Origin: Butyrivibrio sp.
GTDB taxonomy: Bacteria; Bacillota; Clostridia; Lachnospirales; Lachnospiraceae
Assembly: GCA_023664865.1 (NCBI GenBank)
Contig: JAMPEU010000002.1
Coordinates: 124,001 to 188,000 of the forward strand
DNA length: 64,000 nucleotides
Direction of reading: 5' to 3'
Positions 18,440 through 60,244 of the stretch are shown one piece after another. Positions within the stretch are counted from its first letter, which is position 1; each line of letters opens with the position of its first letter. The position numbers were made by a program, and so were the translations under genes. The notes below the pieces were generated by a model, which saw only the letters and a program-made list of their open reading frames with translations, was not told where the DNA came from and ran no database searches.

Positions 18440-18523
18440 ACGAGTTTAAATAAAATGAATAAAAACGGAGCTCCGAAGCGGTGGCTAGTCGCTCCTTATT
18501 TTATTCATTTTATTTAAACTCTG
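18440..18523 (-). repeat. Variable-arm hairpin element, family B copy 1
   Basis: Perfect 23-bp inverted arms 18442-18464 and 18499-18521. Read on the minus strand it has the family layout: CAGAGTTT, variable block AAATAAAA, TGAATAAAATAAGGAGCGAC, a loop, GGAGCTCCG, poly-T, then the mirrored arm ending AAACTCGT. It is in the opposite orientation to the other three copies and has a divergent loop (TAGCCACCGCTTC). Confidence 0.85.
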
Positions 18524-18618
18524 ACTATCGAAATAAGATTAATCAATTACAATGTCATAATATCAATTTAAAAAAGAATACGGTAGTGAAAAAAGAAATA
18601 TTTTAGATATGACTTTTG

Positions 18619-19953
18619 TCATGTTTTTGACTTGCTGCGGCTGCGCATATAAAAACACGTTCCCGCTGCGTCGGCAAGGAACCAGCCAATCGGTACGGAC
18701 ATCCAGATACCTGTCACTCCAATTCCTTCAATGGCTGAAAGGGTATATGCCAGCAGCACACGTGTTCCGAGTGATATCACAGTGAGAATAACTGAGATTC
18801 CCGGCTTGTTTATTGCCCTAAAATATCCGTAGAATAAAAATAATAATCCGATACCAAAATAGAACGACGCTTCAATGCGCAGATATCCGACTCCTACCGC
18901 TGCCGTCTCTGCACTGTTTTCATCAAGAAACCATGACATAATCGGCTTGGCGAAACCAACTACCAGTGCCGAAATAAGTACGCAGAATAAGAATGTGCTT
19001 AAGACGGCGTCTTTCATGCCCTTACGGATTCTCTCGTCTTTTCCCGCCCCATAATTCTGCGCCACATATGTTGAGAACGCATTGCCGAAATCCTGCACAG
19101 GCGAATAAGCAAACGAGTCAATCTTGACTGCTGCCGCAAAAGCCGCCATCACCACGGCTCCAAAACTATTGACAAGCCCCTGAACCATCAAAATACCGAA
19201 GTTCATGACCGACTGCTGAAGACATGTAAGCGATGACAGACCAATCAATTCTTTCAGGATATCTTTGCTCCAACATCTGTTTTCTTTCTTAATATGTACT
19301 TCGGGATACTTTTTTACACAATAAATCAAAATACCGACTCCCGCCGTATATTGCGAGATTACCGTCGCTACCGCCGCTCCGCCGACTCCCCACATAAGCA
19401 CCCTTATAAAAAATAAATCAAGGAAAATATTTAAAATCGCTGAAACGCCTAAAAAGCAGAGCGGTATCAGAGAGTTTCCCAGAGCGCGCATAAAGTTAGC
19501 GACAAAATTATATAAAAATGTTGCAGCAATTCCTGCAAATATCCATAAAAGATATTCTTTCATAAGCGGCGCAACCTCTTTAGGAACGCGGAGAAATACA
19601 AGGATTCCATGAAGTCCCGCATATACCAACACATTCAATGCCAGCGCAACCAGTCCTATTATCAGAAACGCCATATAGATTCCTTTTTCCAGCCTGTTGT
19701 AATCACCTCTGCCAAACTGCATGGAAAAAAAGGCGCTGCTACCCATGCAAAGCCCTAAAATAATCGACGTCACAAAGACCATCAGCGTGTAAGAAGAGCC
19801 CACCGCCGCAAGTGCGTTTTCCCCCAAAAACCGCCCGACAATCAAAGTATCCACCACATTATAAAGCTGTTGAAGTACATTTCCCACCATGATTGGAAAA
19901 GCAAACTTTAACAGCTTTTTCATAATATTTCCCTGTGTTAAATCGTAATTCAT
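18619..19953 (-). CDS. MATE family efflux pump
   Basis: 444 residues starting MNYDLTQGNIMKKLLKFAFP, the usual MATE N-terminus; a TTG at 19971 gives a six-residue longer frame with a poorly spaced site. About twelve membrane segments, with the PIMVGNVLQQLYNVVDTLIV signature near the start and a matching second half (IDSFAYSPVQDFGNAFSTYV). It expels cationic compounds using a Na+ or H+ gradient. It overlaps the end of the acetyltransferase gene or abuts it, so the two form a pair that may jointly give resistance. Confidence 0.9.
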   Translation of the reverse strand: MNYDLTQGNIMKKLLKFAFPIMVGNVLQQLYNVVDTLIVGRFLGENALAAVGSSYTLMVFVTSIILGLCMGSSAFFSMQFGRGDYNRLEKGIYMAFLIIGLVALALNVLVYAGLHGILVFLRVPKEVAPLMKEYLLWIFAGIAATFLYNFVANFMRALGNSLIPLCFLGVSAILNIFLDLFFIRVLMWGVGGAAVATVISQYTAGVGILIYCVKKYPEVHIKKENRCWSKDILKELIGLSSLTCLQQSVMNFGILMVQGLVNSFGAVVMAAFAAAVKIDSFAYSPVQDFGNAFSTYVAQNYGAGKDERIRKGMKDAVLSTFLFCVLISALVVGFAKPIMSWFLDENSAETAAVGVGYLRIEASFYFGIGLLFLFYGYFRAINKPGISVILTVISLGTRVLLAYTLSAIEGIGVTGIWMSVPIGWFLADAAGTCFYMRSRSKSKT

Positions 19954-19958
19954 CTGCC

Positions 19959-20537
19959 TTATACCTGCCAAATCTCCGGAAACGGCTTTACTAGCGGCTG
20001 ATTCTGTTTATGCTCGCCAAGCATTTTCTCCATCCATACCATGTTATACCAGCGTCCGAATTTATAACCGCACTGACGGAACTCTCCCACCAGCCGATAA
20101 CCCATTTTTTCATGATAATATACGCTGGCATTGGTGAGATGTTCGTCCTCTTCATATGTATACGCTATGCAGGCGTTTGCATTGAGTATGCCCTGCTTCT
20201 TTAACGCCGTTTCTAAAGCGTCGTACAGTTTCGTTCCTATTTTTTCACGCTTTTTATCCGCCCTTATATAAATCGTCGTCTCCACACACCAGTCATATGC
20301 AGCGCGCTCCTTGAACGGGGCGGCGTATGTGTAGCCTAACAGTTCGCCGTCGCACTCTGCTACAAAGTATGGGTATTTTTTAAGCGTATTCTCTATGCGA
20401 CGATGGAACTCGTCCACAGTCGGCACGACAAGCTCAAATGAGATTGCGGTATCTTTTACATATGGGGTGTATATTTCTAACAGTGCTTCCGCGTCGGCTG
20501 GATTGGCTACGCGGATGTTTATGTTGTGTTCGTTCAT
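19959..20537 (-). CDS. GNAT N-acetyltransferase, phosphinothricin-acetyltransferase-like
   Basis: 192 residues. IRVANPADAEALLEIYTPYV at the start, the FELVVPTVDEFHRRI segment and GYTYAAPFKERAAYDW are characteristic of the Pat/Bar-like branch (COG1247) of GNAT enzymes. The acetyl-CoA loop (IRADKKREKIGTKLYDAL) departs from the canonical Q/RxxGxG/A but is in the right place. It acetylates the amino group of a small molecule such as methionine sulfoximine or phosphinothricin. The Shine-Dalgarno site (AAAGGA) is unusually far, about 15 nt, from the ATG. Confidence 0.85.
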   Translation of the reverse strand: MNEHNINIRVANPADAEALLEIYTPYVKDTAISFELVVPTVDEFHRRIENTLKKYPYFVAECDGELLGYTYAAPFKERAAYDWCVETTIYIRADKKREKIGTKLYDALETALKKQGILNANACIAYTYEEDEHLTNASVYYHEKMGYRLVGEFRQCGYKFGRWYNMVWMEKMLGEHKQNQPLVKPFPEIWQV

Positions 20538-20637
20538 GGGGGATGATTTTGTTCCTTTCTTGGTGAATTCTCTATTTTATATTTAATATCCGGCTGCATC
20601 CGGCTTAAAATCTGTTTCATTTGTTTCTCTGCTTTTT

Positions 20638-20733
20638 CTGTCACTTTTTTTCTGTCGCTTTTTTTCTGTCACTTTTTTCTGTCACTTTTTTATCGCCATT
20701 TTTTTATCGCCGTTTTTTTATCGCCGTTTTTTA
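20638..20733. repeat. Seven T-tract tandem repeats, two unit types
   Basis: About four units of TGTC(A/G)CTTTTTTT(C) pass into three units of TCGCC(A/G)TTTTTTTA, each 13-14 bp. They lie in the 417-bp gap (20538-20954) between the acetyltransferase gene and the small gene of the defence locus. The rest of the gap is AT-rich and shows only a 33-codon frame (20804-20902, minus) without support. Confidence 0.75.
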
Positions 20734-20954
20734 TTTAGATTTATTAATGCCATCTTAATACCTTTTTTAAATCGTAGCATTTCTATCTCTAATCGCAACT
20801 TTTTCACTTTCCATAAAAACAAGTATTTAGCGCTATCTCTTGGATAACAATACTGCTTGCTTTTCTGCTGATTCCGTTGATTTTTTCAATAATCAGTCGC
20901 ATAATGCCGGAATCATCCTGCCTTCTAAGCTTTTTATATATTAGACTTTACTTT

Positions 20955-21377
20955 TTATGAAATTTCTAGCACATCATAAATTGCACTTAGGCAATCTTCC
21001 GTTGTCAGAACATTCCCATTCTCAAAATATATAACGGTAATATTAAGGTTCTTGCTTTGTTCTTGACTAATAACTGCTTCATTTAGAATATTCTCAAGTT
21101 GCTGTTCATTCTCTCTTGCAATACCTAATGCTCTCCTCCAATATTTCACAAAGTGGTTTTTAAACTTAGAATAATCTGCATATAATCCACTAGGATTTCC
21201 ATTAGCAACATACCCCATTTGTTGTTGGATACATGCCCCCAGCTTATTTATATATTCATAAACTAAATTTTCTTTATCTATAACGCTTGTCACACTGGTA
21301 GAATTTGATAAAATATCCCTGTTAAATAGTATACCCATTTCTCTTTGAAATTGATTACCTGTATTAATATACTGCAT
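20955..21377 (-). CDS. Unknown small protein at the end of the defence locus
   Basis: 140 residues, largely helical by eye, no recognisable motif, no signal peptide. It has Gln/Asn-rich stretches and one WRRALGIAREN segment. AAGGAATCAAT precedes the ATG, a fair ribosome binding site. The gene is AT-rich like the restriction genes upstream and lies about 130 bp after the DUF4365-like gene in the same direction. It may be an accessory of that gene or an independent acquisition; no function can be assigned. Confidence 0.6.
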   Translation of the reverse strand: MQYINTGNQFQREMGILFNRDILSNSTSVTSVIDKENLVYEYINKLGACIQQQMGYVANGNPSGLYADYSKFKNHFVKYWRRALGIARENEQQLENILNEAVISQEQSKNLNITVIYFENGNVLTTEDCLSAIYDVLEIS

Positions 21378-21505
21378 ATTGATTCCTTCTTTCTATATTT
21401 TATTTTCTTTAATTTAACACTATCTTTCTCGCGTTTAATCGCATCTTAACCTTTGTAAGACTTTTTTACACAGTCATTATAATCTGTTACATATCAGCTT
21501 TTCAA

Positions 21506-23317: not shown

Positions 23318-23406
23318 TAACCCTCCACTCCATTATTTATATTCATTATTTTTCATCAAACATCGTTCTATATGATATACGCTAATAACCATCTGCTCAC
23401 TTTTTA

Positions 23407-26006: not shown

Positions 26007-26017
26007 TATTTGTCTCC

Positions 26018-29939: not shown

Positions 29940-29961
29940 ACATATAATATTAACAGAATTG

Positions 29962-30025: not shown

Positions 30026-30090
30026 ATTTATAAAGATATTAAAATTCAGATTCCCTTCCCTTACACAAGCACAGCCTAGACAATAAAATT

Positions 30091-32160: not shown

Positions 32161-32188
32161 GCTTATTCTCCTTTCTTATTCCAGTAAC

Positions 32189-32278
32189 CAGAGTTTCACC
32201 TAAGTGAAAAAAATAAGGGGCGACTTACCTCTTTTCAGGCATTGGAGCCCCGTTTTTGTTCACTTAGGTGAAACTCGT
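32189..32278 (+). repeat. Variable-arm hairpin element, family B copy 2
   Basis: Arms 32191-32208 and 32259-32276 are perfect 18-bp complements with variable block CACCTAAG. The core reads AAATAAGGGGCGACTTACC, CTTTTCAGGCATTGGAGCCCC and poly-T (split here for length). The right arm covers the last codons and the TAA stop (32264-32266) of the heparinase-family gene. Confidence 0.87.
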
Positions 32279-34164: not shown

Positions 34165-34366
34165 GCGGCATTGACTCATATGCTTCTACACTCCGTTCCG
34201 GTCGGTGCTAAACATGCGCCACTGGCGCATAGCACCCTTTTGAGGTCCTTGTAAAACGTCGGTACTTAGTGAAAAAGCCTGCCTTTCGGCTTTTGAACTT
34301 AGTACCGCTACGATTTTACATGGAGCGAGAGTGTGCCTCAAATGGCAGCATATGAGTCAATGCCGC
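34165..34366. repeat. Structured repeat, family A copy 2
   Basis: Outer arms 34165-34184 and 34347-34366 are perfect 20-bp complements containing GGCATTGACTCATATG, close to copy 1. Within lie an extra hairpin (GGTGCTA...TAGCACC, 34204-34236), TTTTGAGG paired with CCTCAAA, and the family core CTTGTAAAACG, GGTACTTAG, CTTAGTACCGC, TACGATTTTACA, TGGAGCGAGAG. It occupies the 303-bp gap (34088-34390) inside the glycan operon. Confidence 0.8.
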
Positions 34367-48454: not shown

Positions 48455-48487
48455 AATTGTAACCTCCGATAATATTCTTGTGTCTTT

Positions 48488-48493
48488 ATTATA
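48488..48493 (-). promoter_or_regulatory. Extended -10 promoter of the beta-galactosidase gene
   Basis: Minus strand TGC-TATAAT; the -35 position (TTCGCG at 18-bp spacing) falls in an arm of hairpin C copy 2, and is a poor match. Confidence 0.55.
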
Positions 48494-48500
48494 GCATAAA

Positions 48501-48549
48501 TTATTTTCAGCCGCGAACAACAAAAATTATCGTTCGCGGCTGGAAATAA
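48501..48549 (-). terminator. Hairpin family C copy 2, end of lysyl-tRNA synthetase gene
   Basis: TTATTTTCAGCCGCGAAC (48501-48518) pairs with GTTCGCGGCTGGAAATAA (48532-48549). It ends the greA-lysS unit on the minus strand (weak T-run) and abuts the next promoter. Confidence 0.75.
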
Positions 48550-48605
48550 TTTTAATTAATTATGAAGTTATATTTCACTTACTGCTTTTAAAATCTTCTT
48601 TCCCA

Positions 48606-50618
48606 TCACCGAATCATAGTCCCTTCCGGCACGATATCGTCTACAAAGATTACCTGACAGCCGCATGCGTTATTAGTCGCTGCAAGCAACATTCCTTCGC
48701 TGGTTACGCCTGTTATTCTGGCTGGCTCAAGATTCGCAATTACGATAATCTTCTTACCGACTAATTCTTCCGGCGTATAATATGCTTTGATGGAAGAAAC
48801 AATTGTACGTTCCTTGATTCCGTCAAACAGAGTCAGTTTATAACAGCTATGTGATTTTCTAATCTCCTGACATTTTAAGACCTTGCATACCCGCAAATCA
48901 AGCTGATTAAAAGTATCCAGACCAATCTGCCCTTTAACAGGCTCTACCGGATCAGGCTCGCCGTATTCTATTTTCTTCTCTTCTTTTTCAGGCGCTTTAT
49001 TTAGTTCCGACAAAGGAGTCTTTTCTTCTTCCGTCTTTTCGCTTGAAAAGTCAAGCAGATGAACAAAACGCTCTTTATCTATTGCATACAGGAACAGATA
49101 GAGCCTAGGTCCTTTTTCTTTATTAAGCAATAACTTATACACAGTTTTGAAAAATTCCCCTTGAATCTTCTTAAGTTCAGGCGAATCCGCTCCATATACA
49201 ATCTTGCTGATTTCATACAATTTAAAATTCAACTCGTCCAATGTATAATTTTCATTCACCAGATAGTCATGCAGCAGGGAAATTTCCTTCTTCTGTTCGT
49301 CGTTTAACTGCTCGTATACTTCCCAATTACGATATGGAACAAGCTTATTGGCGTTCTCAGGCGCGCAGTTTTCCAGCCAGTATTTTGCCAGCTCAAGCCG
49401 CTCTTCAAAATCTGCATATTTATAGGGCTGTCCAATCTTTTCAAACACAGTTTCAAGCATCGGCACATTAAAATCAACTATTGAGCCTAACTGAACAAGC
49501 AGGGACATCGGCACAGTCTTAACCGGCTTATCCGTGAGCAGGCAGCTCTCCATAATGGACTTCACATGGTCGTCAGCCTCCCCCTTTATATACTGGTCGT
49601 ACTGTTTATCAAACTCGAAATACTGACGCAATATGCCATCGTCAAAACACAAATCAAACGCCTTGTTTGCTTCAACTCTTGCATATAACCATAACAGGAT
49701 TTCCGGCTGGTAAATCTTCAAAAGGGTATCGGGAGTCATATTTAGTCCTGACGAACCTGACATTTTTCCTGTCGTTCCTTTGATGCCGATAAACTCATAG
49801 CCTTTGAAAATCGGCGCTTTGAAACCGAAAATCTTTTCCGCAATAACCCTGCTTGTATCATATGAGCCTCTCGGCGCGGCATGGTCTTTTCCGCCGGGTT
49901 CAAAATCCACATGCTCGTACATCCACCGCATCGGCCAGTCAATCTTCCATGCCAGCTTACAGTCGGTATCCGTATTAAAATCAAACGTCCCATGATGACC
50001 GCATTTGCACTCATATTCGGCTTTTTTCTCTACATCGGAATAAGCTACTATCTTCGTGGTATCCCTATGGCACTCGCTGCAATATATGCTTATGGGATAA
50101 TAAGCTTCCTTTTCTCCCTCTACTGCGTCTTGGGTGCGGAAGCTGTCCAAAATATCGAAAATTTCCGCCCTCTTATCAAGCGCCGTAATAATATTTTCAC
50201 GATAACAGCCTGAACGGTACATTTCCGCCTGATGGCGGTAGTCTAATTTGATGCTGAATTTATCAATGGACTCTTCAAATTCTTTCTCAAAATATTCAGC
50301 ATATGTGGCATGTTCCGTATCGAAAGGATTCGGCACGTCTACATACGGATATCCTATATATTTTTCAAAGCCTTCCGTGATATTCGCTACATTTACAGGC
50401 ACTTTGCGCATCCTGTCATATTCGTCCCATGAGAAAAGCAGCTTTGCCTTCTTTCCTTTTCTTTCCAAAGCCCTTACGACAAACAAACTTGTAGCAATAT
50501 CCCTGAAATTACCGATATGAATAGAACCCGAAGGGCTGATTCCTGCCGCGCAGACATATTCTTCTTTATCCGGGTTTCTCTTTATGATTTCATCTGCAAT
50601 CGAATCTGACCAGTGCAT
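48606..50618 (-). CDS. lysS: Class I lysyl-tRNA synthetase with C-terminal tRNA-binding domain
   Basis: 670 residues. The class I signature motifs GISPSGSIHIGN (26-37, HIGH box) and KMSGSSG (near 287, KMSKS box) with the overall LysRS1 sequence (CAAGISPSG, then FSWDEYDRMRKVP) identify the archaeal/spirochaete-type lysyl-tRNA synthetase. The last 105 residues are an OB-fold tRNA-binding domain as in the MetRS tail or Trbp111 (LRVCKVLKCQEIRKSHSCYK; GMLLAA). AAAGGAG lies 8 nt before the ATG. It follows greA, a position where class II LysS is usually found in Firmicutes. Confidence 0.88.
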   Translation of the reverse strand: MHWSDSIADEIIKRNPDKEEYVCAAGISPSGSIHIGNFRDIATSLFVVRALERKGKKAKLLFSWDEYDRMRKVPVNVANITEGFEKYIGYPYVDVPNPFDTEHATYAEYFEKEFEESIDKFSIKLDYRHQAEMYRSGCYRENIITALDKRAEIFDILDSFRTQDAVEGEKEAYYPISIYCSECHRDTTKIVAYSDVEKKAEYECKCGHHGTFDFNTDTDCKLAWKIDWPMRWMYEHVDFEPGGKDHAAPRGSYDTSRVIAEKIFGFKAPIFKGYEFIGIKGTTGKMSGSSGLNMTPDTLLKIYQPEILLWLYARVEANKAFDLCFDDGILRQYFEFDKQYDQYIKGEADDHVKSIMESCLLTDKPVKTVPMSLLVQLGSIVDFNVPMLETVFEKIGQPYKYADFEERLELAKYWLENCAPENANKLVPYRNWEVYEQLNDEQKKEISLLHDYLVNENYTLDELNFKLYEISKIVYGADSPELKKIQGEFFKTVYKLLLNKEKGPRLYLFLYAIDKERFVHLLDFSSEKTEEEKTPLSELNKAPEKEEKKIEYGEPDPVEPVKGQIGLDTFNQLDLRVCKVLKCQEIRKSHSCYKLTLFDGIKERTIVSSIKAYYTPEELVGKKIIVIANLEPARITGVTSEGMLLAATNNACGCQVIFVDDIVPEGTMIR

Positions 50619-50704
50619 ATCCTAAAATCTCCTTTAATTATGCGTATACTATACTGCTGACTAAACGCCCACTTTTACTTATAGTATTGTAAGTACGCGG
50701 TCAT

Positions 50705-51187
50705 TTAGTTAGACCTCTTAATCGCCAATACCTTATACTGTAAAGTACCTGCCTGGGTTTCCACTTCTACGACTTCACCTATTTTGCTGCCGATTAAAGC
50801 CTTGCCTACCGGGGATTCATTAGAAATCTTACCTTTTAAGCTGTTTGCTTCAGTCGAGCCTACAATCTTGTATTCCAGTTCTTCCGCATATTCCATATCC
50901 AGAATTATAACTTGGCAGCCGATATTGATTTTATCCAAATCAACCTCATCTTCCACAACTACTTCGGCATTTTTCAGAATCTTCTCTAATTCTTCAATCC
51001 TTGCCTCTATGTCGCGCTGCTCGTCTTTGGCAGCGTCATATTCCGCGTTCTCCGATAAGTCGCCTTGTTCTCTTGCTTCTTTGATTTTCTGAGCAACTTC
51101 CTGTCTCTTCACAACCTTGAGTTCATGCAGTTCGTTCTCATACTTTCTCAAGCCCTCATAAGTTAAAATGTTCTTCTTTTCTTCCAT
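50705..51187 (-). CDS. greA: Transcription elongation factor GreA
   Basis: 160 residues, the standard length. N-terminal coiled coil with LSENAEYDAAKDEQRDIEAR carrying the acidic tip residues that enter the RNA polymerase secondary channel, and a C-terminal FKBP-like domain (SNESPVGKALIGSKIGEVVE). It rescues backtracked polymerase by stimulating transcript cleavage. AGGAAAGG precedes the ATG. It is upstream of and likely co-transcribed with lysS. Confidence 0.97.
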   Translation of the reverse strand: MEEKKNILTYEGLRKYENELHELKVVKRQEVAQKIKEAREQGDLSENAEYDAAKDEQRDIEARIEELEKILKNAEVVVEDEVDLDKINIGCQVIILDMEYAEELEYKIVGSTEANSLKGKISNESPVGKALIGSKIGEVVEVETQAGTLQYKVLAIKRSN

Positions 51188-51272
51188 GACAATCGCCTTT
51201 CCTGTCTATATTTTTCTCTTTTTCTTCTGTCAAATCACACTAGATGTCAATTATAACCCGACATATGTTTCA

Positions 51273-52280
51273 TTACCGCATTGTCTGATTAACTAATTTA
51301 TCATAACCACTTTTTACCAGAGTGTCAAGGTATTTTCGCGGAGAGATGTAGTAAATTTCCATGTATTTTCGTTTAAGCAGCGTTTCTTTTTCGGCAGATG
51401 AAAATATATCCATATATATATCCCCTGTTTTTAGTGCGCGCAAGGGTATATCTCCTGAGTATCCAAAATCCAGAAAAAGCACGCTGCCTTGTCCGCCGGC
51501 TATATTATTTCGGTTAATTCGCACTTCACTTCCCCGCTGTATCATGGCGGCAAGCCCATATTCGTAATATAACTCTTCCGTGTACTCGGATATTATTTCT
51601 TCCTGCTTATTCTGTCCATGTTCGTCCTGTTGCCATCTGTCCTGTTCGTGTATGCTTTGTTCTGATTGGTTATGCCGTCGAATATCCTGCTCTTGTTCAG
51701 CTTCTGTACCGGAATCTTCTTCATCAGGTTCATACAGGATAGTAAGGTAATTAATCTGCGCAAGGCAGGGCTGCATTATTTCCATGAATTTCTGCATCTG
51801 TTCTTCTAAGAAAAGTGAATTTCCAAGCAAAAGCACAACCGTTTCCGCAAATACCCCCCTGCGTTTTGACGATGCTTTTGAAGACGCTTTCTTCACAAGA
51901 CGGTTACTATCAAGCCGTCTGTCCTCTATCCACTTCTGCGCAAGTGGCCATGATATAGGCAAAAATAAATCCGTTTGTCCTAATAGCTGCTGCACTTCTT
52001 TCTGCATGACTATATCTGCGCCCTCCAAATGCGCCGCTTTTTCAGACACAGATTTATACATGAGGCGAAGAAGTTTATCTTTCTTCCAGCCTTTTTGCAA
52101 ATCAGGAATCATTATAACATTTATACGCAGCCCTTCCTCATCCACAGCAAAAGACGGAAACTGTATTTTGTGAAAAAATCGGGGTTTAACATAGCGTTTA
52201 CTGCCGGTAATCGATTCCTCGGTAATAAAATAAATAAGCGGATTTCTCTCGGTACGATAAAATATTGTTTCGTTTCTCAT
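51273..52280 (-). CDS. Unknown protein with Gln/Glu/His-rich insert
   Basis: 335 residues, no signal peptide or membrane segment. A first domain of about 190 residues and a C-terminal domain of about 95 residues flank a low-complexity stretch (about 195-230) rich in Glu, Gln, Asp and His. A YEYGLAAMI and LFLDFGYSGDIPLRALKTGD segment is the most regular part. No clear ribosome binding site; it starts 13 bp after the dus stop, so it may depend on coupling. I do not recognise the family. It resembles Lachnospiraceae-specific hypothetical genes in this neighbourhood. Confidence 0.65.
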   Translation of the reverse strand: MRNETIFYRTERNPLIYFITEESITGSKRYVKPRFFHKIQFPSFAVDEEGLRINVIMIPDLQKGWKKDKLLRLMYKSVSEKAAHLEGADIVMQKEVQQLLGQTDLFLPISWPLAQKWIEDRRLDSNRLVKKASSKASSKRRGVFAETVVLLLGNSLFLEEQMQKFMEIMQPCLAQINYLTILYEPDEEDSGTEAEQEQDIRRHNQSEQSIHEQDRWQQDEHGQNKQEEIISEYTEELYYEYGLAAMIQRGSEVRINRNNIAGGQGSVLFLDFGYSGDIPLRALKTGDIYMDIFSSAEKETLLKRKYMEIYYISPRKYLDTLVKSGYDKLVNQTMR

Positions 52281-52293
52281 ATGAGAATATACG

Positions 52294-53250
52294 CTAAAGC
52301 TGTTCTATTAATTCCACCAATTCCGAAAATTTTTCAACTGCATTTACACGCTGCCTAAGCCTGGCGGAATTAGGCATTCCAGCGGTATACCATGACACGT
52401 GTTTGCGCATTTCGCGCACTCCCGTATACTCTCCTTTATACTCAAGCTGCAGTCTGCTGTGTCTAATCATCATCGCCTTTCTTTCTTCATCCGTAACAGG
52501 CGGAAGGACTTTTCCATCTTCCAAATAAGCTGTGATTTGGCTAAAAATCCATGGATTTCCTCTTGCCGCGCGCCCTATCATCACGCCGTCGCAGCCTGTC
52601 TGTTTTAACATATTTGCCGCGCTCTCATGGTCCGTAATGTCTCCGTTTCCTATCACAGGTATGGATACGTTTTCTTTTACACGGGCTATAACGCTTAAAT
52701 CCGCAGCTCCTGAATAAAACTGTTCTCGGGTTCTGCCATGCACTGCGACTGCTGCAGCTCCGGCGTCTTCGATTATTTTCGCCATTTCAACTGCATTGAT
52801 ATGCTCTTTATCAAAACCGCTGCGGATTTTTACCGTCACAGGTTTCTTCACAGCCTTTACTACCGCAGAGACAATTTCTCCCGCCAGCTTCGGATTCTTT
52901 ATAAGCGCCGAGCCTTCGCCGTTATTAACTACTTTTGGCACAGGACAGCCCATATTTATATCCAGAATGGAAAATGGAAGTTCTTCTATGCGTTTCGCTA
53001 TATCACTCATTATTTTCGGCTCAGATCCGAATAACTGTAAAGATACCGGCGTTTCATCGGGGTGCATCTCAAGCAGGGTTTTAGTATTTTTATTATTATA
53101 TAATATTGCCTTAGCGCTTACCATTTCCGAACAGACAAGCGCAGCCCCCTGTTCCTTGCACAGCAAACGAAACGGCAGGTCAGTTACCCCTGCCATCGGC
53201 GCCAGTATCACATTATTCTCAAGCTCTACATTCCCTATTTTTAATCTCAC
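52294..53250 (-). CDS. dusB: tRNA-dihydrouridine synthase
   Basis: 318 residues, GTG start at 53250 with GAGG 8 nt upstream. FMN-dependent TIM barrel: VILAPMAGVTDLPFR, NMGCPVPKV with the catalytic Cys near 100, VHGRTREQFYSG, and GNGDI plus MIGRAARGNPWIF for phosphate binding. It reduces uridine in the D-loop of tRNA. It is the first of a run with the unknown gene 51273, greA and lysS. Confidence 0.95.
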   Translation of the reverse strand: MRLKIGNVELENNVILAPMAGVTDLPFRLLCKEQGAALVCSEMVSAKAILYNNKNTKTLLEMHPDETPVSLQLFGSEPKIMSDIAKRIEELPFSILDINMGCPVPKVVNNGEGSALIKNPKLAGEIVSAVVKAVKKPVTVKIRSGFDKEHINAVEMAKIIEDAGAAAVAVHGRTREQFYSGAADLSVIARVKENVSIPVIGNGDITDHESAANMLKQTGCDGVMIGRAARGNPWIFSQITAYLEDGKVLPPVTDEERKAMMIRHSRLQLEYKGEYTGVREMRKHVSWYTAGMPNSARLRQRVNAVEKFSELVELIEQL

Positions 53251-53270
53251 TCGGTATACCTCTAATAGTC

Positions 53271-53358
53271 CAGAGTTTATGTTAAATGAACAAAATAAGG
53301 AGCGACTTACCGCTTTTCAGGCATGGAGCTCCGTTTTTGTTCATTTAGCATAAACTCG
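53271..53358 (+). repeat. Variable-arm hairpin element, family B copy 3
   Basis: Arms 53273-53295 and 53333-53356, variable block ATGTTAAA paired with TTTAGCAT through one G-U pair. Core AATAAGGAGCGACTTACCGC and GGAGCTCC. It lies between the DUF6145-like gene and dusB. Confidence 0.87.
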
Positions 53359-53366
53359 TAATATAG

Positions 53367-53714
53367 TCACAAACTTTCATGCAAAACAAACACCCGATAA
53401 TACAGACTTAGCGATTCAAACATCTCCTGCCTGCTCCTGAGTATCTCGCGCACCATAAGCCCGCTGCTGATTTCATCATAAAGCAAGTCGTCTTTATCTG
53501 CGTCAGTCTCTAAAGAAATGTTCCCGTCCTCTTCAAATACCACAGTAATTATTCCGCCCACTTCTTCGGTAAAGAGTACGCATATTATATGCAGTTCCTC
53601 TTTAATGGACTCCGGAATATTGGCAAACTGTGCATTAAAATAATATTTCTGCTCATAAGCGTTTGCACCGCAAAGCACTATGCGCTCTTCCATAGAATCA
53701 CCTATCTTAGACAT
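53367..53714 (-). CDS. DUF6145-like small protein
   Basis: 115 residues. EERIVLCGANAYEQKYYFNA, an ICVLFTEEVGGIITVVFEED core and EALSLYYRVFV-like ending match my memory of the DUF6145 family, which sits beside birA in many Lachnospiraceae. No function known. GGGGAG precedes the ATG, whose codon overlaps the birA end by 8 bp. Confidence 0.75.
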   Translation of the reverse strand: MSKIGDSMEERIVLCGANAYEQKYYFNAQFANIPESIKEELHIICVLFTEEVGGIITVVFEEDGNISLETDADKDDLLYDEISSGLMVREILRSRQEMFESLSLYYRVFVLHESL

Positions 53715-54504
53715 AACCGTAAACTCCCCTGACAGACACCTCTCCCGAATCCACCCGTACTATATCTCCATTTCCCGCCTCTACCAGAAGTTCTCCTGCC
53801 CTGCTAATTCCTCTGGCAATTCCTGAATATTCTCCCTTAGGATCAAGCACCCTGATTTCAGAGTCACGGTTCAGAAGCAGTTCATCGTAGGCTCCCATAA
53901 GCAGACTTAAATCGAGGGTTGTGACAAACGTGTCATAATTCTTTTCAAACCTAAAAAGCACCCGCTCTATCAATTCGTTTCTGCTTATATGTTTTCCGGA
54001 TTCTATTTTAAGCGACGTCGCCGTCTGCCTGATTTCTTCCGGAAAATCTTCCGGACTGTCATTATTCACATTGATGCCTACACCAATAACCACATGCTGA
54101 ATACTCCCTGTTTCAACGCTCATCTCCGTTAATATGCCGCAGACCTTTTTAGCATTTACCACGATATCATTAGGCCACTTGATACCTGCCTTAATACCTG
54201 TGGCGTCGGATATCGCCTGCGCCACGCTTAGCGCCATCACCAGCGTCAGCATCGGCGCTTTATCCGGCGCAAAATCCGGCTTTAATAAAATCGTCATATA
54301 GACGGAGCTTTCATGCGGAGACTGCCATGTCCTGCCTCTCCTGCCCCTGCCTGCCGTCTGCATATCGGCTATTACAACAGTTCCGTGCGGCGCGTCTTCT
54401 CCAGCCAGTCTCTTTGCATCAAGATTGGTAGATTCAGTTTCCTCAAAATAATAGAGCTTCCGCCCCGCCCATTCGGTAGGCGGGTTTATTTTATCTGTCT
54501 TCAT
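53707..54504 (-). CDS. birA: Biotin-[acetyl-CoA carboxylase] ligase
   Basis: 265 residues, lacking the N-terminal HTH seen in bifunctional BirA, so it is a ligase only. Catalytic loop GRGRRGRTWQSP and GIKWPNDIVV, then a C-terminal SH3-like domain. It makes biotinyl-AMP and transfers biotin to carboxylase or decarboxylase carrier proteins. It follows argF by 1 bp and overlaps the DUF6145-like gene. Confidence 0.95.
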   Translation of the reverse strand: MKTDKINPPTEWAGRKLYYFEETESTNLDAKRLAGEDAPHGTVVIADMQTAGRGRRGRTWQSPHESSVYMTILLKPDFAPDKAPMLTLVMALSVAQAISDATGIKAGIKWPNDIVVNAKKVCGILTEMSVETGSIQHVVIGVGINVNNDSPEDFPEEIRQTATSLKIESGKHISRNELIERVLFRFEKNYDTFVTTLDLSLLMGAYDELLLNRDSEIRVLDPKGEYSGIARGISRAGELLVEAGNGDIVRVDSGEVSVRGVYGYV

Positions 54505-54505
54505 T

Positions 54506-55504
54506 CTAATTCTCCGGCATACCGAGCGTCGCCGCCATTACCGCCTTAATCGTGTGCATACGGTTCTCTGCCTCGTCAAATACGATAGACTGCGGCGATT
54601 CAAACACCTCGTCGGTTACTTCCATTTCGTTGATACCGAATTTTTCGCTGATTTCTTTGCCTATCGTGGTTCTTAAATCGTGGAATGCCGGCAGACAGTG
54701 CATAAATACCGCCGACTTTCCTGCATTTTTCATAACTTCGCTATTCACCTGATATGGCATAAGCGCCTTGATACGTTCCGCCCAGACTTCATCAGGTTCC
54801 CCCATAGACACCCATACGTCCGTATAAACCACGTCCACGTCCTTCGTGCCGTCTGTGACGCTCTGCGTCATGCGTATGCTGCCTCCGGTCTGCGCTGCAA
54901 TCTTCTCACATTCTTCTATCAGCTCACTCGCAGGAAAATATTCTTTGCTTGTGCAGGCTGTGAAATTCATGCCCATTTTGGCGCACGCCACCATCAGAGA
55001 GTTACCCATGTTATAACGCGCGTCGCCCATATATGTAAGCTTTATGCCCTGTAAATGCCCGAAATGCTCCCTAATTGTCAACAAATCGGCTAACATCTGG
55101 GTAGGGTGGAACTCGTTAGTAAGTCCGTTCCACACAGGCACACCGGCATACTTAGCGAGTTCGTCCACTATCTCCTGTCCGTATCCGCGGTACTCAATGC
55201 CTTCGTACATGCGCCCTAAAACCCTAGCTGTATCCGCAATGCTCTCCTTTTTACCTATCTGCGAGCCTTTGGGAGCCAGATAGGTTGTTCCAAGCCCTAA
55301 ATCATGCGCCGCCACTTCAAATGAGCAGCGTGTCCTTGTACTTGTTTTCTCAAAAATCAGCGCAACATTTTTCCCTCTATAATAATCCGTAAGAATGCCC
55401 TTTTTCTTTTTTTCTTTTAAATCCGCTGCCACATCAAGAAGATATGTTATTTCCTCCGGAGAAAAATCCAGAAGTTTCAAAAAATTCCGACCTTGTAAAT
55501 TCAT
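54506..55504 (-). CDS. argF: Ornithine carbamoyltransferase
   Basis: 332 residues from ATG 55504, with AAGGAAG 7 nt upstream. Carbamoyl phosphate motif [25 protein letters not shown] and ornithine-binding HCLPAF. It converts ornithine and carbamoyl phosphate to citrulline; with no other arg genes near, whether the role is anabolic or catabolic cannot be read. A -10-like hexamer is not obvious in the 179-bp upstream gap. Confidence 0.96.
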
Positions 55505-55613
55505 ACTCGAACTTCCTTTCCATGTAGTTTTCATATACTTTCACAGATAATTGAAAAATATTCCTGCTAAACCCATAACATCCAGTTTCACAATTATCAA
55601 ATATAAATCGATT

Positions 55614-55638
55614 AGGACGGTCCAAAAAGAACCGTCCT
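55614..55638 (-). terminator. Terminator of the NfeD-SPFH operon
   Basis: AGGACGGT (55614-55621) pairs with ACCGTCCT (55631-55638). T-rich flanks lie on both sides (stronger on the plus strand), 46 bp past the SPFH stop codon. Confidence 0.65.
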
Positions 55639-55683
55639 ATTTCTATTTTTCATAATCTCACACTATGATTTAACAGCCGCCTT

Positions 55684-56607
55684 TTACTTCAATATCTCTT
55701 TAACGGACGCTGCCAGTCCTGCCATTCCCTGAATTTCGGAAGGAATAATAATCTTAGTAGCGTTACCGTCCGCCGCTTTCTCAAAAGCTTCGAGACTCTT
55801 TATTCTCAGTACCGCCTCGTCTGCACCCGCCTCACGAATCATGCGGATACCGTCTGCCGTAGCCTGCTGTACTTTCAGTATTGCTGCTGCCTCACCTTCT
55901 GCCTCGCGAATCATTTTCTCTTTTTCAGCTTCCGCACGCAGAATTGCCGACTGCTTCTCCGCCTCTGCTTCCAAAATAAGTGATTCCTTCTTACCTTCTG
56001 CAACTAAGACAGTTGATTTCTTCTCACCTTCTGCACGAAGAATAGCTTCACGACGTTCACGCTCAGCCTTCATCTGTTTCTCCATTGCATCCTGAATCGC
56101 TGCCGGCGGAATAATATTTTTCAGTTCGACTCTGTTTACTTTAATACCCCACGGATCTGTCGCGATATCAAGCGAAGCTCTCATTTTAGTATTAATTACT
56201 TCTCTGGAAGTAAGCGTCTGGTCGAGTTCCATCTCACCGATAATATTTCTAAGAGTGGTCGCCGTCAGGTTTTCAATCGCCATAATCGGATTTTCCACGC
56301 CGTATGCAAACAACTTCGGATCTGTAATCTGATAGAATACAACCGTATCAATCCTCATGGTTACGTTATCCTTTGTAATAACGGGCTGCGGTGCAAAGTC
56401 TACAACCTGCTCTTTCAAAACAACCCTTTTTGCAACCTTGTCAACTACCGGCATGATTATATGAAATCCGACCGGCAGAGTCTGCTGATAAGCTCCTAAA
56501 CGTTCAACAACAAATGCGTACGCCTGCGGAACTATCTTTATGCAGGAAAGTAACATAATAACAACAATTAAAATAACAACTAATAAAAAAACAAAAAGTC
56601 CCGGCAT
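55684..56607 (-). CDS. SPFH/band 7 membrane scaffold protein
   Basis: 307 residues. N-terminal membrane anchor (about 3-23), then the SPFH domain (VPQAYAFVVERLGAYQQTLP; TMRIDTVVFYQITDPKLFAY) and a long Ala/Glu-rich coiled coil (about 185-250). It resembles QmcA/stomatin. These proteins organise membrane microdomains and protease quality control, usually with an NfeD partner, which is encoded 5 bp upstream here. Confidence 0.94.
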   Translation of the reverse strand: MPGLFVFLLVVILIVVIMLLSCIKIVPQAYAFVVERLGAYQQTLPVGFHIIMPVVDKVAKRVVLKEQVVDFAPQPVITKDNVTMRIDTVVFYQITDPKLFAYGVENPIMAIENLTATTLRNIIGEMELDQTLTSREVINTKMRASLDIATDPWGIKVNRVELKNIIPPAAIQDAMEKQMKAERERREAILRAEGEKKSTVLVAEGKKESLILEAEAEKQSAILRAEAEKEKMIREAEGEAAAILKVQQATADGIRMIREAGADEAVLRIKSLEAFEKAADGNATKIIIPSEIQGMAGLAASVKEILK

Positions 56608-56612
56608 CTTTC

Positions 56613-57056
56613 TTATCCCTCTTTTCTTTCTTCAACAATTAATTTTACACCATCAACGCCCAATATCGTTACAACAGCGCCAATTGGAATATTAATATTA
56701 TTGTAGCTGCTCCTCGCAGACCACTCCATACCTCCGGTATTCACCTGTCCTAAACCTTCGGTATTATTAATCTCGCTGATAACAATCGCCTGTCTGCCAA
56801 TCATGCCCTCGATATTGGTTCTGACTCTGTCACGGTTAAAATATTTGACCGCAACCGGTCTTGTGAAATACAGCAGAACCGCAGATACCGCCAAAAATAC
56901 GAAAATCTGCAAAGGAAGCGGCAATCCCGGTATTGAAATAAGCGCCGCCGCTAACGCGCCTCCTGCAAACCATATTGTCGTCAGTCCCATAGTGAAAAGT
57001 TCAATCGCAACCAGTACAACCATAAGTATAAGCCATACTATTGTCATATCTGCCAT
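56613..57056 (-). CDS. NfeD-family membrane protein
   Basis: 147 residues from ATG 57056 (GGGGTG about 8 nt upstream; a GTG one codon earlier is in frame). Three to four membrane segments (about 5-75) and a C-terminal OB-fold domain (about 85-145, IEGMIGRQAIVISEI; GAVVTILGVDGVKLIVEE). It is the short NfeD form, without a protease domain, that partners SPFH proteins. Driven by the promoter at 57081-57109. Confidence 0.92.
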   Translation of the reverse strand: MADMTIVWLILMVVLVAIELFTMGLTTIWFAGGALAAALISIPGLPLPLQIFVFLAVSAVLLYFTRPVAVKYFNRDRVRTNIEGMIGRQAIVISEINNTEGLGQVNTGGMEWSARSSYNNINIPIGAVVTILGVDGVKLIVEERKEG

Positions 57057-57080
57057 CACAACTCACCCCTTCCCCTATAT

Positions 57081-57109
57081 ATTCTACTATATTATTTTAA
57101 TAGAAACAA
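57081..57109 (-). promoter_or_regulatory. Promoter of the nfeD-SPFH operon
   Basis: Minus strand TTGTTT (57104-57109), 17 bp, TAGAAT (57081-57086). Confidence 0.6.
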
Positions 57110-57170
57110 GTATATATTATTATATCGGGAATAAGGATTTATAACCTGCTCAGGCTCTAAAATACCAATT

Positions 57171-58256
57171 TTACCAGAAAACCTGATGTCCGATAATCAT
57201 TCCGTCATGATTTCCCGCTACTCTAAAGTGAGTCGCATCTCCTACATTGCTCACTCCCGCCATAGCTTCCTGCGCCGCCTGATAACAGCTATCAAGTATA
57301 TTTCCGTTATTATATACCTTGGCAACCTTGCCGCTCATTGCCGGCGTAAATTGGCCTGACGCATAGATTACGCCTGAAATCGTATTAGGATAAGCTCCGC
57401 TCCTTACTCTGTTCATTACCACAGATGCAACCGCCAGCTTTCCTTCATACGGTTCGGAACCTGCCTCGCACTGAATAAGAGCCGCCATAAGCCGCAAATC
57501 GTCTGCATCTGCAATAACAGCCTGATTAGCGTCTGCAATCGCTTTCTTTTTGGCTGCAGCCGCCTCTTCTTCCCTTTTCTTTATTGACGCCATAGTCTCA
57601 CCTGCGTCAATATGGAAGTCCATATTCACATATTTTGCCGAAACATACGCCGCGTCATTTTCAAAATACACGCTTATCCAGTCGTCATTTACAACCTCGA
57701 TAACTTCCAGCGCATCATCCTGCGCCAGCCAGCCCAGAATTTCTGCTCCTTCATCAGGCTCTTTGCGCACCCTCAAGCCGTCTGTTTCAATCGTAACAAT
57801 CATATTGCCGACTTCACTTGCCAAAGCTTCCGCGTCTGCGCCAAAAAGCAGATATTCGTCGTTAGCCCAGCCCACCAAATCTCCCGATTCAAGCTTAGTC
57901 CAGCCGTTCTTTCTCTCAAGGATATGCCCCCCGCAGTCCTTGTATAAAAGTCCGACCTTCTCTGCATCTTCGGACGCATCTGCGCGCACGTTTAACGCTG
58001 CCTTAACATCCGCCATAACCAAATCTGATTCTTCCTCCGGTTTCTTAGCAGATGTTTCATTATCCGACGTTCCTTCTTTTGCCGTCATATCAAGGTCATC
58101 ATCATTAGTCGAAATAGCATTTGATACTCCCACACTTAAGGAATCGAGATATTCCTTAGTCCCCACTGCAGACGCATCCATACTTATCCCACACATCATA
58201 TATAGGCTTATAACAAGACTCGTCAGTATAAGCCCCAGTCTTTTACCCCTTTTCAT
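57171..58256 (-). CDS. SleB/CwlJ-type cell wall hydrolase with SH3 domains
   Basis: 361 residues. Signal peptide (about 1-30), acidic linker, two bacterial SH3 domains (about 80-140 and 148-210; ALNVRADASEDAEKVGLLYK and GLRVRKEPDEGAEILGWLAQ), a short coiled coil rich in Ala/Lys, and a C-terminal Hydrolase_2 domain (LMAALIQCEAGSEPYEGKLA; VASVVMNRV; GNHDGMIIGHQVFW). The catalytic Glu is in IQCEA. It cleaves peptidoglycan, probably as a lytic or cortex-lytic enzyme in growth or spore germination. Confidence 0.92.
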   Translation of the reverse strand: MKRGKRLGLILTSLVISLYMMCGISMDASAVGTKEYLDSLSVGVSNAISTNDDDLDMTAKEGTSDNETSAKKPEEESDLVMADVKAALNVRADASEDAEKVGLLYKDCGGHILERKNGWTKLESGDLVGWANDEYLLFGADAEALASEVGNMIVTIETDGLRVRKEPDEGAEILGWLAQDDALEVIEVVNDDWISVYFENDAAYVSAKYVNMDFHIDAGETMASIKKREEEAAAAKKKAIADANQAVIADADDLRLMAALIQCEAGSEPYEGKLAVASVVMNRVRSGAYPNTISGVIYASGQFTPAMSGKVAKVYNNGNILDSCYQAAQEAMAGVSNVGDATHFRVAGNHDGMIIGHQVFW

Positions 58257-58327
58257 GAATGCATACCTCCACTTTTAATTATTATTTGCAAAATTATTAC
58301 AAAATTGTTAAATAGTCGTTTTGGATA

Positions 58328-58356
58328 ATTCTAGCAAAACATTATACCTTTGTCAA
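58328..58356 (-). promoter_or_regulatory. Promoter of the SleB-like hydrolase gene
   Basis: Minus strand TTGACA (58351-58356), 17 bp, TAGAAT (58328-58333); a perfect -35. GGAGG precedes the ATG at 58256. Confidence 0.8.
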
Positions 58357-58403
58357 GTTTGCATTTCAATAATATTAAATTTGGGAAAATATGCACAAAA
58401 TTG

Positions 58404-59198
58404 TTACAATTTTTTTGACTTTTCAACACACGCTGCCAAGGCATCCATAACCGCCCCGCGCATGCCCTTTTCTTCTAATACCCTCACTCCCTGAATGGTC
58501 GTACCGCCGGGAGAACATACCATGTCTTTCAGTTCGCCCGGGTGTTTCCCACTCTCCAATACCAATTTGGCGCTGCCATACACGGTCTGCGCTGCAAACT
58601 CATACGCCTGCGCCCGCGACATTCCTGCCGCCACTCCCGCATCCGCCATCGCCTCAATAAACATAAACACATATGCAGGCGAACTGCCGCTGACTGCACC
58701 GACTGCGTCCATAAGTTTCTCCGGCACAAGGCTTGCTTTGCCGAAACTCTCCATCAGCTTAATGCTCATCTCAGTTTCTTCCTGCGACACTTTATCGTTC
58801 ACGCATACTCCCGTACAGCCTTCGCCCACAAGCGCCGGAGTATTGGGCATGCAGCGCACAAGTTTTATACGTCTGCCAAAAACATTCTCAATCCATTCCA
58901 ATGTCTTGCCTGCCGCGATACTGATAATAAGCGCATCAGCCCTTACTGAATCCTTTATTTCCAATATTACTTCTTCCATAACCTGGGGTTTAACTGCAAG
59001 TATAAGTACATCTGACATTGCCGCCGTTTCAGAATTAGTTTTGCTGACACATGTGTCATATTTTGTTTTTATGGTTTCTTTTGTCGCCTCAGTCTTAGAA
59101 CAACCGATAATATCTGCTGGCTTTACTATCTCCTTTTTCAACATACCCGCTATCATTGCGTCCGCCATATTTCCTAAGCCGATAAATCCGATTTTCAT
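58404..59198 (-). CDS. proC: Pyrroline-5-carboxylate reductase
   Basis: 264 residues from ATG 59198 with GGAGGAG 8 nt upstream; the frame to 59252 is longer but unsupported. Rossmann motif GFIGLGNMADAMI, RCMPNTPALVGEG, and the C-terminal helical domain GSSPAYVFMFIEAMADAGV. It makes proline from pyrroline-5-carboxylate with NAD(P)H. Single gene 19 codons past an imperfect palindrome (GTTGTA/TACAAC, 59235-59253). Confidence 0.95.
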   Translation of the reverse strand: MKIGFIGLGNMADAMIAGMLKKEIVKPADIIGCSKTEATKETIKTKYDTCVSKTNSETAAMSDVLILAVKPQVMEEVILEIKDSVRADALIISIAAGKTLEWIENVFGRRIKLVRCMPNTPALVGEGCTGVCVNDKVSQEETEMSIKLMESFGKASLVPEKLMDAVGAVSGSSPAYVFMFIEAMADAGVAAGMSRAQAYEFAAQTVYGSAKLVLESGKHPGELKDMVCSPGGTTIQGVRVLEEKGMRGAVMDALAACVEKSKKL

Positions 59199-59270
59199 AA
59201 CTGGTCTCCTCCAATTCATTATTTTATGACATGAGTTGTATATATTGTACAACGTAACCTATCCAAAATG

Positions 59271-60062
59271 TTATTTCTGTCTCCTCTGTCTCGCCGCCTC
59301 ATATATCAGCACAGAAGCCGCTACCGCCGCATTGAGCGATTCCACTTTGCCTAACATGGGAATTTTTATCGCAGCATCCGCCGCTTTCGCAGTTTCCTCA
59401 CGAAGCCCGTTTCCTTCATTCCCTATCAGAAAAGCCGTTCCCGATTGGTAATTACATTCATCATAGGCTTTTGCACCCTCAAGATGCGCAGCATAGACTG
59501 TAATATTTTTCTTCTGCATTTCTTCTATTATAATGTTTAAATCCTGCACATAGAGAAACGGCATCCGATACACAGCACCCATCGTAGAGCGTATGGCCTT
59601 AGGGTTATAAATATCCGCCGTATCATCGCTCATAATAATCCCGCTTACTCCTGCACCCTCCGCAGCGCGAAAAATAGTGCCGAGATTTCCCGGATCCTGA
59701 ATAGTTTCTAATATAATAAACATGGGATTTGGCGTTTTGAACATTGCAGACTCAGTATACCGACTTTGCCGTACCACACAGAGAATTCCCTGCGGCGTCT
59801 TCGTATCCGACATTTTTACAAATATTTCATCAGAAACTGTCTCATAATAAGAAATCTCTGTTTCAAGCTTCGCCTTACAGGCGTCGGACATTTCTTTTAA
59901 AAAAGACTCTGAAACGTAAACCTTTTCAATCATATCCACAGGCGCTTCAAGGAACATTTTTATGCCCTCAGCCACAAAAAGCCCCTGTTCGCGCCGCTCC
60001 TTCGCCTTCTGCTCAAGCTGAATGACTGCCTTTACCCCTTTATTATCACTACTCGTTATCAT
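59271..60062 (-). CDS. TrmH/SpoU-family RNA 2'-O-methyltransferase
   Basis: 263 residues. An N-terminal substrate-binding domain (about 1-100) and a SPOUT knot domain with DPGNLGTIFRAAEGAG, GAVYRMPF and FLIGNEGNGL (AdoMet-binding knot). It methylates ribose of rRNA or tRNA; the exact nucleotide is unclear (YsgA/RlmB-like). A family B hairpin and AT-rich repeats precede it in the gap after pfkA. Confidence 0.92.
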   Translation of the reverse strand: MITSSDNKGVKAVIQLEQKAKERREQGLFVAEGIKMFLEAPVDMIEKVYVSESFLKEMSDACKAKLETEISYYETVSDEIFVKMSDTKTPQGILCVVRQSRYTESAMFKTPNPMFIILETIQDPGNLGTIFRAAEGAGVSGIIMSDDTADIYNPKAIRSTMGAVYRMPFLYVQDLNIIIEEMQKKNITVYAAHLEGAKAYDECNYQSGTAFLIGNEGNGLREETAKAADAAIKIPMLGKVESLNAAVAASVLIYEAARQRRQK

Positions 60063-60096
60063 ATCAGACTTTCCCTTTAATATTCTTTATGGCAGA

Positions 60097-60150
60097 CTAT
60101 TATAATTGCTATTACAATTACTATTACATATTATTACAATTGCTATTTCA
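60097..60150. repeat. AT-rich short tandem repeats
   Basis: Repeated ATTACAATTGCTATT / ATTACAATTACTATT units of about 12-18 bp lie directly left of the family B copy 4. Confidence 0.6.
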
Positions 60151-60155
60151 ATAAC

Positions 60156-60244
60156 CAGAGTTTAATCAACATGAACAAAATAAGGGGCGACTTACCTCTT
60201 TTCAGGCATGGAGCCCCGTTTTTGTTCATGTTGATTAAACTCGT
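60156..60244 (+). repeat. Variable-arm hairpin element, family B copy 4
   Basis: Perfect arms 60158-60180 and 60220-60242 with variable block AATCAACA. Core AATAAGGGGCGACTTACC and GGAGCCCC. Its right end is repeated two more times downstream (60272 and 60309). Confidence 0.88.

What the first reader, a model, noticed from the sequence alone, without database searches (positions are those of the whole stretch)
18440..60244. Family of four dispersed hairpin elements with constant ends and core but a private, mirrored 8-nt arm sequence in each copy
Copies at 18440-18523 (minus), 32189-32278, 53271-53358 and 60156-60244 share CAGAGTTT on the left, AAACTCGT on the right and the core TGAA(C)AAAATAAGGRGCGAC...GGAGCYCCGTTTTT. 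Between GAGTTT and TGAA each has a different 8-mer: AAATAAAA, CACCTAAG, ATGTTAAA, AATCAACA. In every copy that 8-mer is repeated as its complement in the other arm (one G-U pair in copy 3). The core stem also co-varies: GGGGC with GCCCC in copies 2 and 4, GGAGC with GCTCC in copies 1 and 3. Constant ends plus a variable but always self-complementary block is not expected of a normal terminator or of a MITE decaying by mutation. It implies either selection on RNA structure or a copying step in which one arm templates the other. I know of no described family with this layout.
Basis: seen in the sequence. Interest (0 to 1): 0.85.

Follow-up and report, generated by a model that had tools for sequence, protein, structure and literature searches.

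The report
Hairpin repeats whose arms stay matched
The genome carries about a hundred copies of a small DNA hairpin, usually just after genes, whose two arms drift in sequence yet stay mirror images of each other, most likely because replication recopies one arm from the other; the process is known, the repeat family appears undescribed.

Summary
The four window copies belong to a family found at 115 places in this genome. In 96 copies of usable geometry the arm block has 72 distinct 8-mers; own arms pair at 7.56 of 8 positions, against 5.34 between copies. The family is patchy in its genus (17 of 77 genomes at E <= 0.01). A relative about 10% diverged in flanks shares 13 hairpins at the same sites. 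In the 10 counted, 14 stem pairs changed on both sides (11 of them from one Watson-Crick pair to another) and 11 on one side; independent arms would give about 1.7 two-sided changes. The block changes at least as fast as flanking DNA; loop and remaining stem are conserved. Lone mismatches in the block show no preference for G-T over A-C, and nine copies have a family-typical internal loop rewritten to pair with the other arm. This fits DNA-level recopying of one arm from the other (template switching, known) better than selection on an RNA, but half of the two-sided changes come from one site. Most classified copies lie just after stop codons, in a preferred orientation (54 to 13). They look like bidirectional terminators; movement and function are not shown.

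The parts
18442..18521 (-). copy 1, short-loop type, block AAATAAAA/TTTTATTT; hairpin missing in relative G182, where only outer-end sequence remains
32191..32276 (+). copy 2, block CACCTAAG/CTTAGGTG; same site and block in G182 apart from two one-sided stem changes; its right arm (32264-32266) supplies the stop codon of the minus-strand ORF 32264-34087
53273..53357 (+). copy 3, block ATGTTAAA/TTTAGCAT (one G-T); in G182 only a right arm with a different block (TGTTGCCT) remains
60158..60242 (+). copy 4, block AATCAACA/TGTTGATT; G182 orthologue has AGTCAACA/TGTTGACT, one pair changed on both sides
60144..60157 (+). left conserved flank (family consensus T.TTTCaATAaCCA), shown for copy 4
60243..60256 (+). 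right flank of copy 4 (family consensus GTGACAG.AAatAA; this copy has diverged)
60271..60290 (+). hairpin-less repeat of the right end (CTAAACTCGTCCCAGCAAAT)
60308..60327 (+). second hairpin-less repeat of the right end

Best explanation
A non-autonomous, REP/MITE-like palindromic repeat family that has spread to over 100 mostly intergenic sites, often just after stop codons. The GC stem with T-rich tails on both strands would act as a bidirectional intrinsic terminator (inferred). Mutations strike the arms at about the ordinary rate. Because the arms form a near-perfect DNA palindrome, replication occasionally switches template and recopies one arm from the other, so a change is either mirrored or erased (inferred from shown patterns). 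Ends, inner stem and loop are held by constraint of unknown origin; the central block is free to drift, so it diverges between copies while staying mirrored.
For: (1) Own arms pair at 7.56 of 8 block positions against 5.34 between copies; all eight pair in 62 of 96 copies against 4.6%. (2) Ten orthologous hairpins in two genomes: 14 two-sided and 11 one-sided changes in 230 pairs; 11 of the 14 go from one Watson-Crick pair to another, 4 of these by transversion; 147 of 1453 flank sites differ. (3) Among lone mismatches at block positions 9-11: G-T 10, A-C 14, other 21; G-T share 22% against 36% expected with no preference. G-T is tolerated in RNA but is a mismatch in DNA. (4) The internal loop TAA/G, whose TAA is in place in 90 of 108 listed copies here and 21 of 23 printed from relatives (counted by me), is rewritten to pair with the opposite arm in L118, L122 and L126 (left from right) and in L050, L127, L128, L129, L131 and L134 (right from left); the direction is inferred, and L118, L122 and L131 keep one or two deviations. 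For L126 the relative keeps the unrewritten form. (5) Core inverted between its flanks in L012 and L029 and apparently L255: spacer inversion is a reported outcome of template switching (PMC8604942). (6) A second palindromic family behaves alike: 0.88 paired own against 0.67 between copies, in 21 of 30 parsed copies.
Against: Two-sided changes are dominated by L092 (7 of 14), and the 3 in L123 are not pair-preserving: its G000 arms are mismatched there. Leaving both out, 4 two-sided pair-preserving changes remain (L019, L100 two, L126). In the non-block stem, lone G-T exceed A-C (14 to 5), which could mean some RNA-level tolerance. The loop and constant stem change slowly at single loci (rest of stem 12 of 340 sides; loop 7 of 208), so selection also acts. 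Replacement of whole hairpins cannot be excluded. No replication experiment or mutation-accumulation data.
Confidence: 0.56

Rival explanations
1. Ordinary compensatory evolution: the long hairpin is needed as an RNA (terminator or mRNA 3' end stabiliser), and mismatches are repaired by second-site mutation under selection.
For: Strong covariation; most classified copies sit just after stop codons in a preferred orientation, 54 to 13, p = 4.5e-7; constant stem and loop conserved between orthologues; G-T exceeds A-C outside the block (14 to 5).
Against: No G-T preference in the block (10 G-T, 14 A-C at positions 9-11; 19 and 16 at 8-13); multi-base rewriting that removes the family-typical internal loop and, in the right-from-left cases, the T tract; if termination occurs at the T tract the second outer arm is not transcribed; high turnover of whole hairpins between relatives (34 of 60 anchored rows show none of the motifs tested in G182).
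Confidence: 0.21
2. Unit replacement: hairpins at a site are swapped whole (ectopic gene conversion or reinsertion between copies), so both arms change at once.
For: Differences between orthologues are uneven: L092 has 7 two-sided changes and L106 none; L008 and its G182 counterpart are inverted in place with different arms; family-2 bodies occur inside family-1 ends (L040, L044).
Against: No identical donor arm among the held copies of either genome for eight tested arms, nearest 1-3 differences; 89 distinct 23-nt left arms among 96 copies is unlike homogenising conversion; does not explain where the diversity came from.
Confidence: 0.16
3. Target copying: a new insertion builds its left arm as an inverted copy of the target, so the private block comes from the site.
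For: At L142 the left arm equals the reverse complement of the hairpin-less G182 site across the junction; at L113 the left arm matches the G182 allele better than its own right arm.
Against: The same pattern follows from deletion between short direct repeats in G182; four sites keep the right arm there, including inner T-rich stem sequence (L018, L086, L101, L125), which marks loss, not an empty target. Polarity was not established with an outgroup.
Confidence: 0.05

Closest known systems
Template-switch (quasi-palindrome) homogenisation of inverted repeats (PMC8794818 and PMC8604942, passages read; PMC7202029 seen in search listing)
   Same: One arm templates the other; multi-base changes at once; compensatory changes in a single step; spacer inversions.
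   Different: In the passages read the cases are rRNA and microRNA hairpins and yeast coding DNA; here it is seen in parallel over about 100 dispersed copies, with a free-drifting block between constrained segments.
REP elements as defined in PMC12306157 (passages read)
   Same: Extragenic, palindromic, multicopy, with a consensus.
   Different: Hairpin of 80-86 nt rather than 14-40; T-rich tails of the kind by which that paper separates terminators from REPs; no Y1 transposase found in this genome.
Bacterial MITEs and other small mobile repeats (PMC2229807, abstract start seen in listing)
   Same: Small, non-autonomous, many copies; inverted-repeat ends AATTGCGAAACT/AGTTTCGCAATT in the fullest copies.
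   Different: No target duplication established and no transposase partner found.
Inverted DNA-uptake-sequence terminators (PMC1852404, title and abstract start seen in listing; details recalled)
   Same: Dispersed repeats doubling as intrinsic terminators after genes.
   Different: Much longer palindrome with a conserved loop; an uptake role was not tested.

Membership tests
Template-switch-homogenised inverted repeats | both arms change together between orthologues | tested here: met
   14 two-sided (11 pair-preserving) against 11 one-sided changes in 10 orthologous hairpins; 7 of the 14 in one site
Template-switch-homogenised inverted repeats | multi-base rewriting of one arm to the complement of the other | tested here: met
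   L126 against its G182 orthologue; eight further copies without a polarised comparison
Template-switch-homogenised inverted repeats | spacer inversion between arms | tested here: inconclusive
   core inverted between flanks in L012, L029 and apparently L255; ancestral state not shown
Template-switch-homogenised inverted repeats | dependence on replication or repair genotype | not testable with these tools
   needs experiment
REP element (definition in PMC12306157) | extragenic, palindromic, consensus, multicopy | tested here: met
   1 of 88 classified copies inside a long ORF
REP element (definition in PMC12306157) | short, 14-40 nt in E. coli | tested here: not met
   80-86 nt hairpins in the window
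REP element with RAYT (defining link recalled) | Y1 transposase flanked by the repeat | tested here: not met
   0 Y1_Tnp hits in this genome and in G182; four of the ten genomes searched had one hit each and those loci carry no R1 match at E <= 0.1
MITE | terminal inverted repeats | tested here: inconclusive
   AATTGCGAAACT-type ends visible in relatives' copies and some copies here; beyond about 14 nt no conservation in the flank profile; the end pattern with up to 2 mismatches has 58 hits here against 24 for the reversed control
MITE | target-site duplication | tested here: inconclusive
   no consistent duplication seen by eye in the anchored sites
MITE | autonomous partner with the same ends | not tested
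   end pattern was listed but pairs bracketing a gene were not examined
Intrinsic terminator | GC stem followed by a T tract, after genes | tested here: met
   GGRGC/GCYCC followed by a T-rich tract on both strands; 43 of 54 tandem antisense copies lie about -20 to +35 nt from a stop codon. A generic scan of 48000-64000 with 3-8 nt loops found 10 sites against 11.9 expected, one of them inside copy 3
Intrinsic terminator | termination in vivo | not testable with these tools
   no RNA data
Rfam RNA family | match to a curated model | tested here: not met
   0 in the window at gathering score; at E <= 5 in five loci 11 rows, ten microRNA and one twister-P3, all below gathering score

The most novel reading that the evidence does not exclude
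The arms are rewritten by a dedicated activity linked to the element's own copying: a folded single strand is the mobile form, constant segments are the recognised sites, and the block is renewed (from target or by fold-back synthesis) at each insertion.
Probability: 0.07. Interest if true: 0.85.

Novelty: new variant of a known kind. Interest (0 to 1): 0.5.

Why it matters
About a hundred similar palindromes at separate sites, in a genome with a close relative for comparison, form a natural replicate experiment on how often template switching recopies palindrome arms. It is also a caution: strong covariation, usually read as proof of a selected RNA structure, may arise here largely from DNA-level copying.

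Tried and rejected
Rfam family: none. RAYT/IS200-type partner: not found. Integron attC and Xer/dif-like sites were considered from the layout (constant-spacer-constant arms) but only by recalled motifs and not tested; dropped. Transposition with target copying was a strong lead at L142 and L113 and was weakened by the half-hairpins left in G182. Hypervariability of the block by a special mutator was dropped: in orthologues 27 of 120 block sides differ against 147 of 1453 flank sites (tallied); if a mirrored change counts once, this is 17 of 60 pairs, near the roughly 20% expected from two sites per pair at the flank rate. Artefact of one assembly: rejected because a second assembly shares the same private arms at the same sites (L017, L106). 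Generic terminator scan: uninformative for this loop size. A regex run timed out and a first arm-geometry run was off by one base and was replaced. One of the 96, L039, carries the mini-hairpin in both arms. Of 109 regex places, one (L133) was a chance match and 12 were left out of the arm counts: six with a mini-hairpin insertion (L028, L035, L047, L136, L140, L142), five half or deleted units (L032, one in L046, two in L048, one in L112) and L130 (parsed off frame). Of the 13 orthologous hairpins, L008 (inverted), L028 and L035 (inserted arm) were not counted; L122, L126 and L128 are shifted in register, so their block positions are approximate by one. The G182 classes rest on motifs and undercount remnants: L016 (copy 1) falls under 'none' although end sequence remains.
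Full report
Observation. The four copies are present at the stated places with the stated mirrored blocks and co-varying core stem; each folds far better than its shuffles, z -8.7 to -10.6. Nothing in Rfam matches the window at gathering score.

Genome-wide family. A left-arm-only pattern finds 34 exact copies and 0 for the reversed control. Fetched loci hold 109 core matches by regular expression, one of them a chance match. In 96 copies of usable geometry there are 72 distinct blocks and 89 distinct 23-nt arms. Own arms pair at 7.56 of 8 block positions, 5.34 when left and right come from different copies. Variation peaks at stem positions 9-11, where all four Watson-Crick pairs occur; the ends, the inner stem and the loop vary much less. 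The conserved unit extends about 14 nt on each side (T.TTTCaATAaCCA and GTGACAG.AAatAA).

Distribution. Of 150 family genomes, 3 matched, the own genome included. The only organism name seen is for a relative, a MAG titled 'Clostridiales bacterium isolate NALB_7961_5'; that it is G182 is inferred from equal contig lengths. Of 23 copies printed from five other genomes of the genus, all keep the layout, often with a different loop, and most have constant ends that differ in mirror, GAACTTAG..CTAAGTTC. A copy in another genus shares the core and has different, mirrored arms (L059).

Orthologues. 60 rows could be anchored in G182: 14 with a hairpin there (one, L048, mis-anchored), 4 with only the right arm, 1 with only the left, 7 with an outer-end motif only (some may be chance), 34 with none of the motifs tested (L016 is among these although end sequence remains). 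In the 10 hairpin pairs counted, 230 stem pairs show 14 two-sided and 11 one-sided changes; 11 of the 14 keep a Watson-Crick pair, while the 3 in L123 join a mismatched state in G000 to a paired one in G182. Changed sides are 39 of 460, so about 1.7 two-sided changes would be expected from independent arms (my arithmetic). Flanks differ at 147 of 1453 sites and the loop at 7 of 208 (two pairs with unequal loop length left out of the loop count). Block positions 8-13 changed at 27 of 120 sides and the other stem positions at 12 of 340 (tallied by me; tests). These orthologues are the surviving, detectable ones, which favours conserved hairpins.

Mechanism. Three things favour copying of DNA over selection on RNA. 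First, lone mismatches at positions 9-11 are 10 G-T, 14 A-C and 21 others; flank substitutions (389 transitions, 151 transversions) predict 36% G-T with no preference, and 22% are seen. At positions 8-13 the numbers are 19, 16 and 24. Second, nine copies have the family-typical internal loop rewritten to pair with the opposite arm; in L126 the relative still has the usual form. Third, the core is inverted between its flanks in L012 and L029. Template switching is reported to create and maintain RNA hairpins (PMC8794818, passages) and to homogenise arms and invert spacers (PMC8604942, passages). Against this: L092 alone gives 7 of the 14 two-sided changes, L123 shows unmatched arms, and outside the block G-T exceeds A-C by 14 to 5.

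Function. Of 108 listed copies, 20 had too little flank; of the other 88, 54 lie between tandem genes read opposite to the element, 13 in the same direction, 7 convergent, 6 divergent, 1 inside a long ORF, and 7 unclassified (long ORFs, not curated genes). Of the 54, 43 lie about -20 to +35 nt from the stop codon, median 13.5. With T tracts on both sides of the GC stem this suggests a bidirectional terminator or mRNA 3' end element; the orientation bias could also reflect the replication strand, which was not separated. No transposase partner was found: no Y1 transposase in this genome or G182, and no family member near the four found in relatives; other transposase or recombinase families were not searched.

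Second family. Two loci that share the outer ends carry another body, which proves to be a separate palindromic family with 132 pattern hits (up to two mismatches) and 0 for the control. In 21 of 30 parsed copies with common ungapped geometry the arms pair at 0.88 against 0.67 between copies. Mirrored private arms are therefore not confined to the family of the finding.

Literature. Eight searches of the held open-access library gave no description of this family in their listings; subscription papers are not held, so 'undescribed' is provisional.

Noticed in passing
about 34165-34366 and 310-444 in the window; 132 pattern hits in the genome: A second abundant palindromic repeat family (core ..CTTAGTACCGCTGCG..GGAGCGAGAGCGTG..) with long mirrored private arms around CATATG; no Rfam match in the family-2 loci L040/L044 at E <= 5.
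   Followed up: partly
L028, L035, L039, L047, L136, L140, L142; G182 L213: A mini-hairpin of about 28 nt (ACAGATAATTTACGAAGTAAATTTTCTGT) inserted inside hairpin arms, usually next to TGAAC/GTTC; present in G000 and absent in the G182 orthologue at L028 and L035. None in the window at up to 3 mismatches.
   Followed up: partly
L036, L046, L048, L112: Tandem half units (loop plus right arm plus right flank) repeated at about 80 bp spacing after a full hairpin.
   Followed up: no
L008 against L195 (G182): The element with its flanks lies in opposite orientation at the same site in the two genomes, with different arms.
   Followed up: no
60271-60327; L002: Tandem hairpin-less copies of the right end CTAAACTCGTGACAGCAAAT, 28-37 bp apart.
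   Followed up: no
32264-32266: The stop codon of the minus-strand ORF 32264-34087 lies inside the private block of copy 2; several other copies overlap a predicted ORF end by up to about 26 nt.
   Followed up: partly
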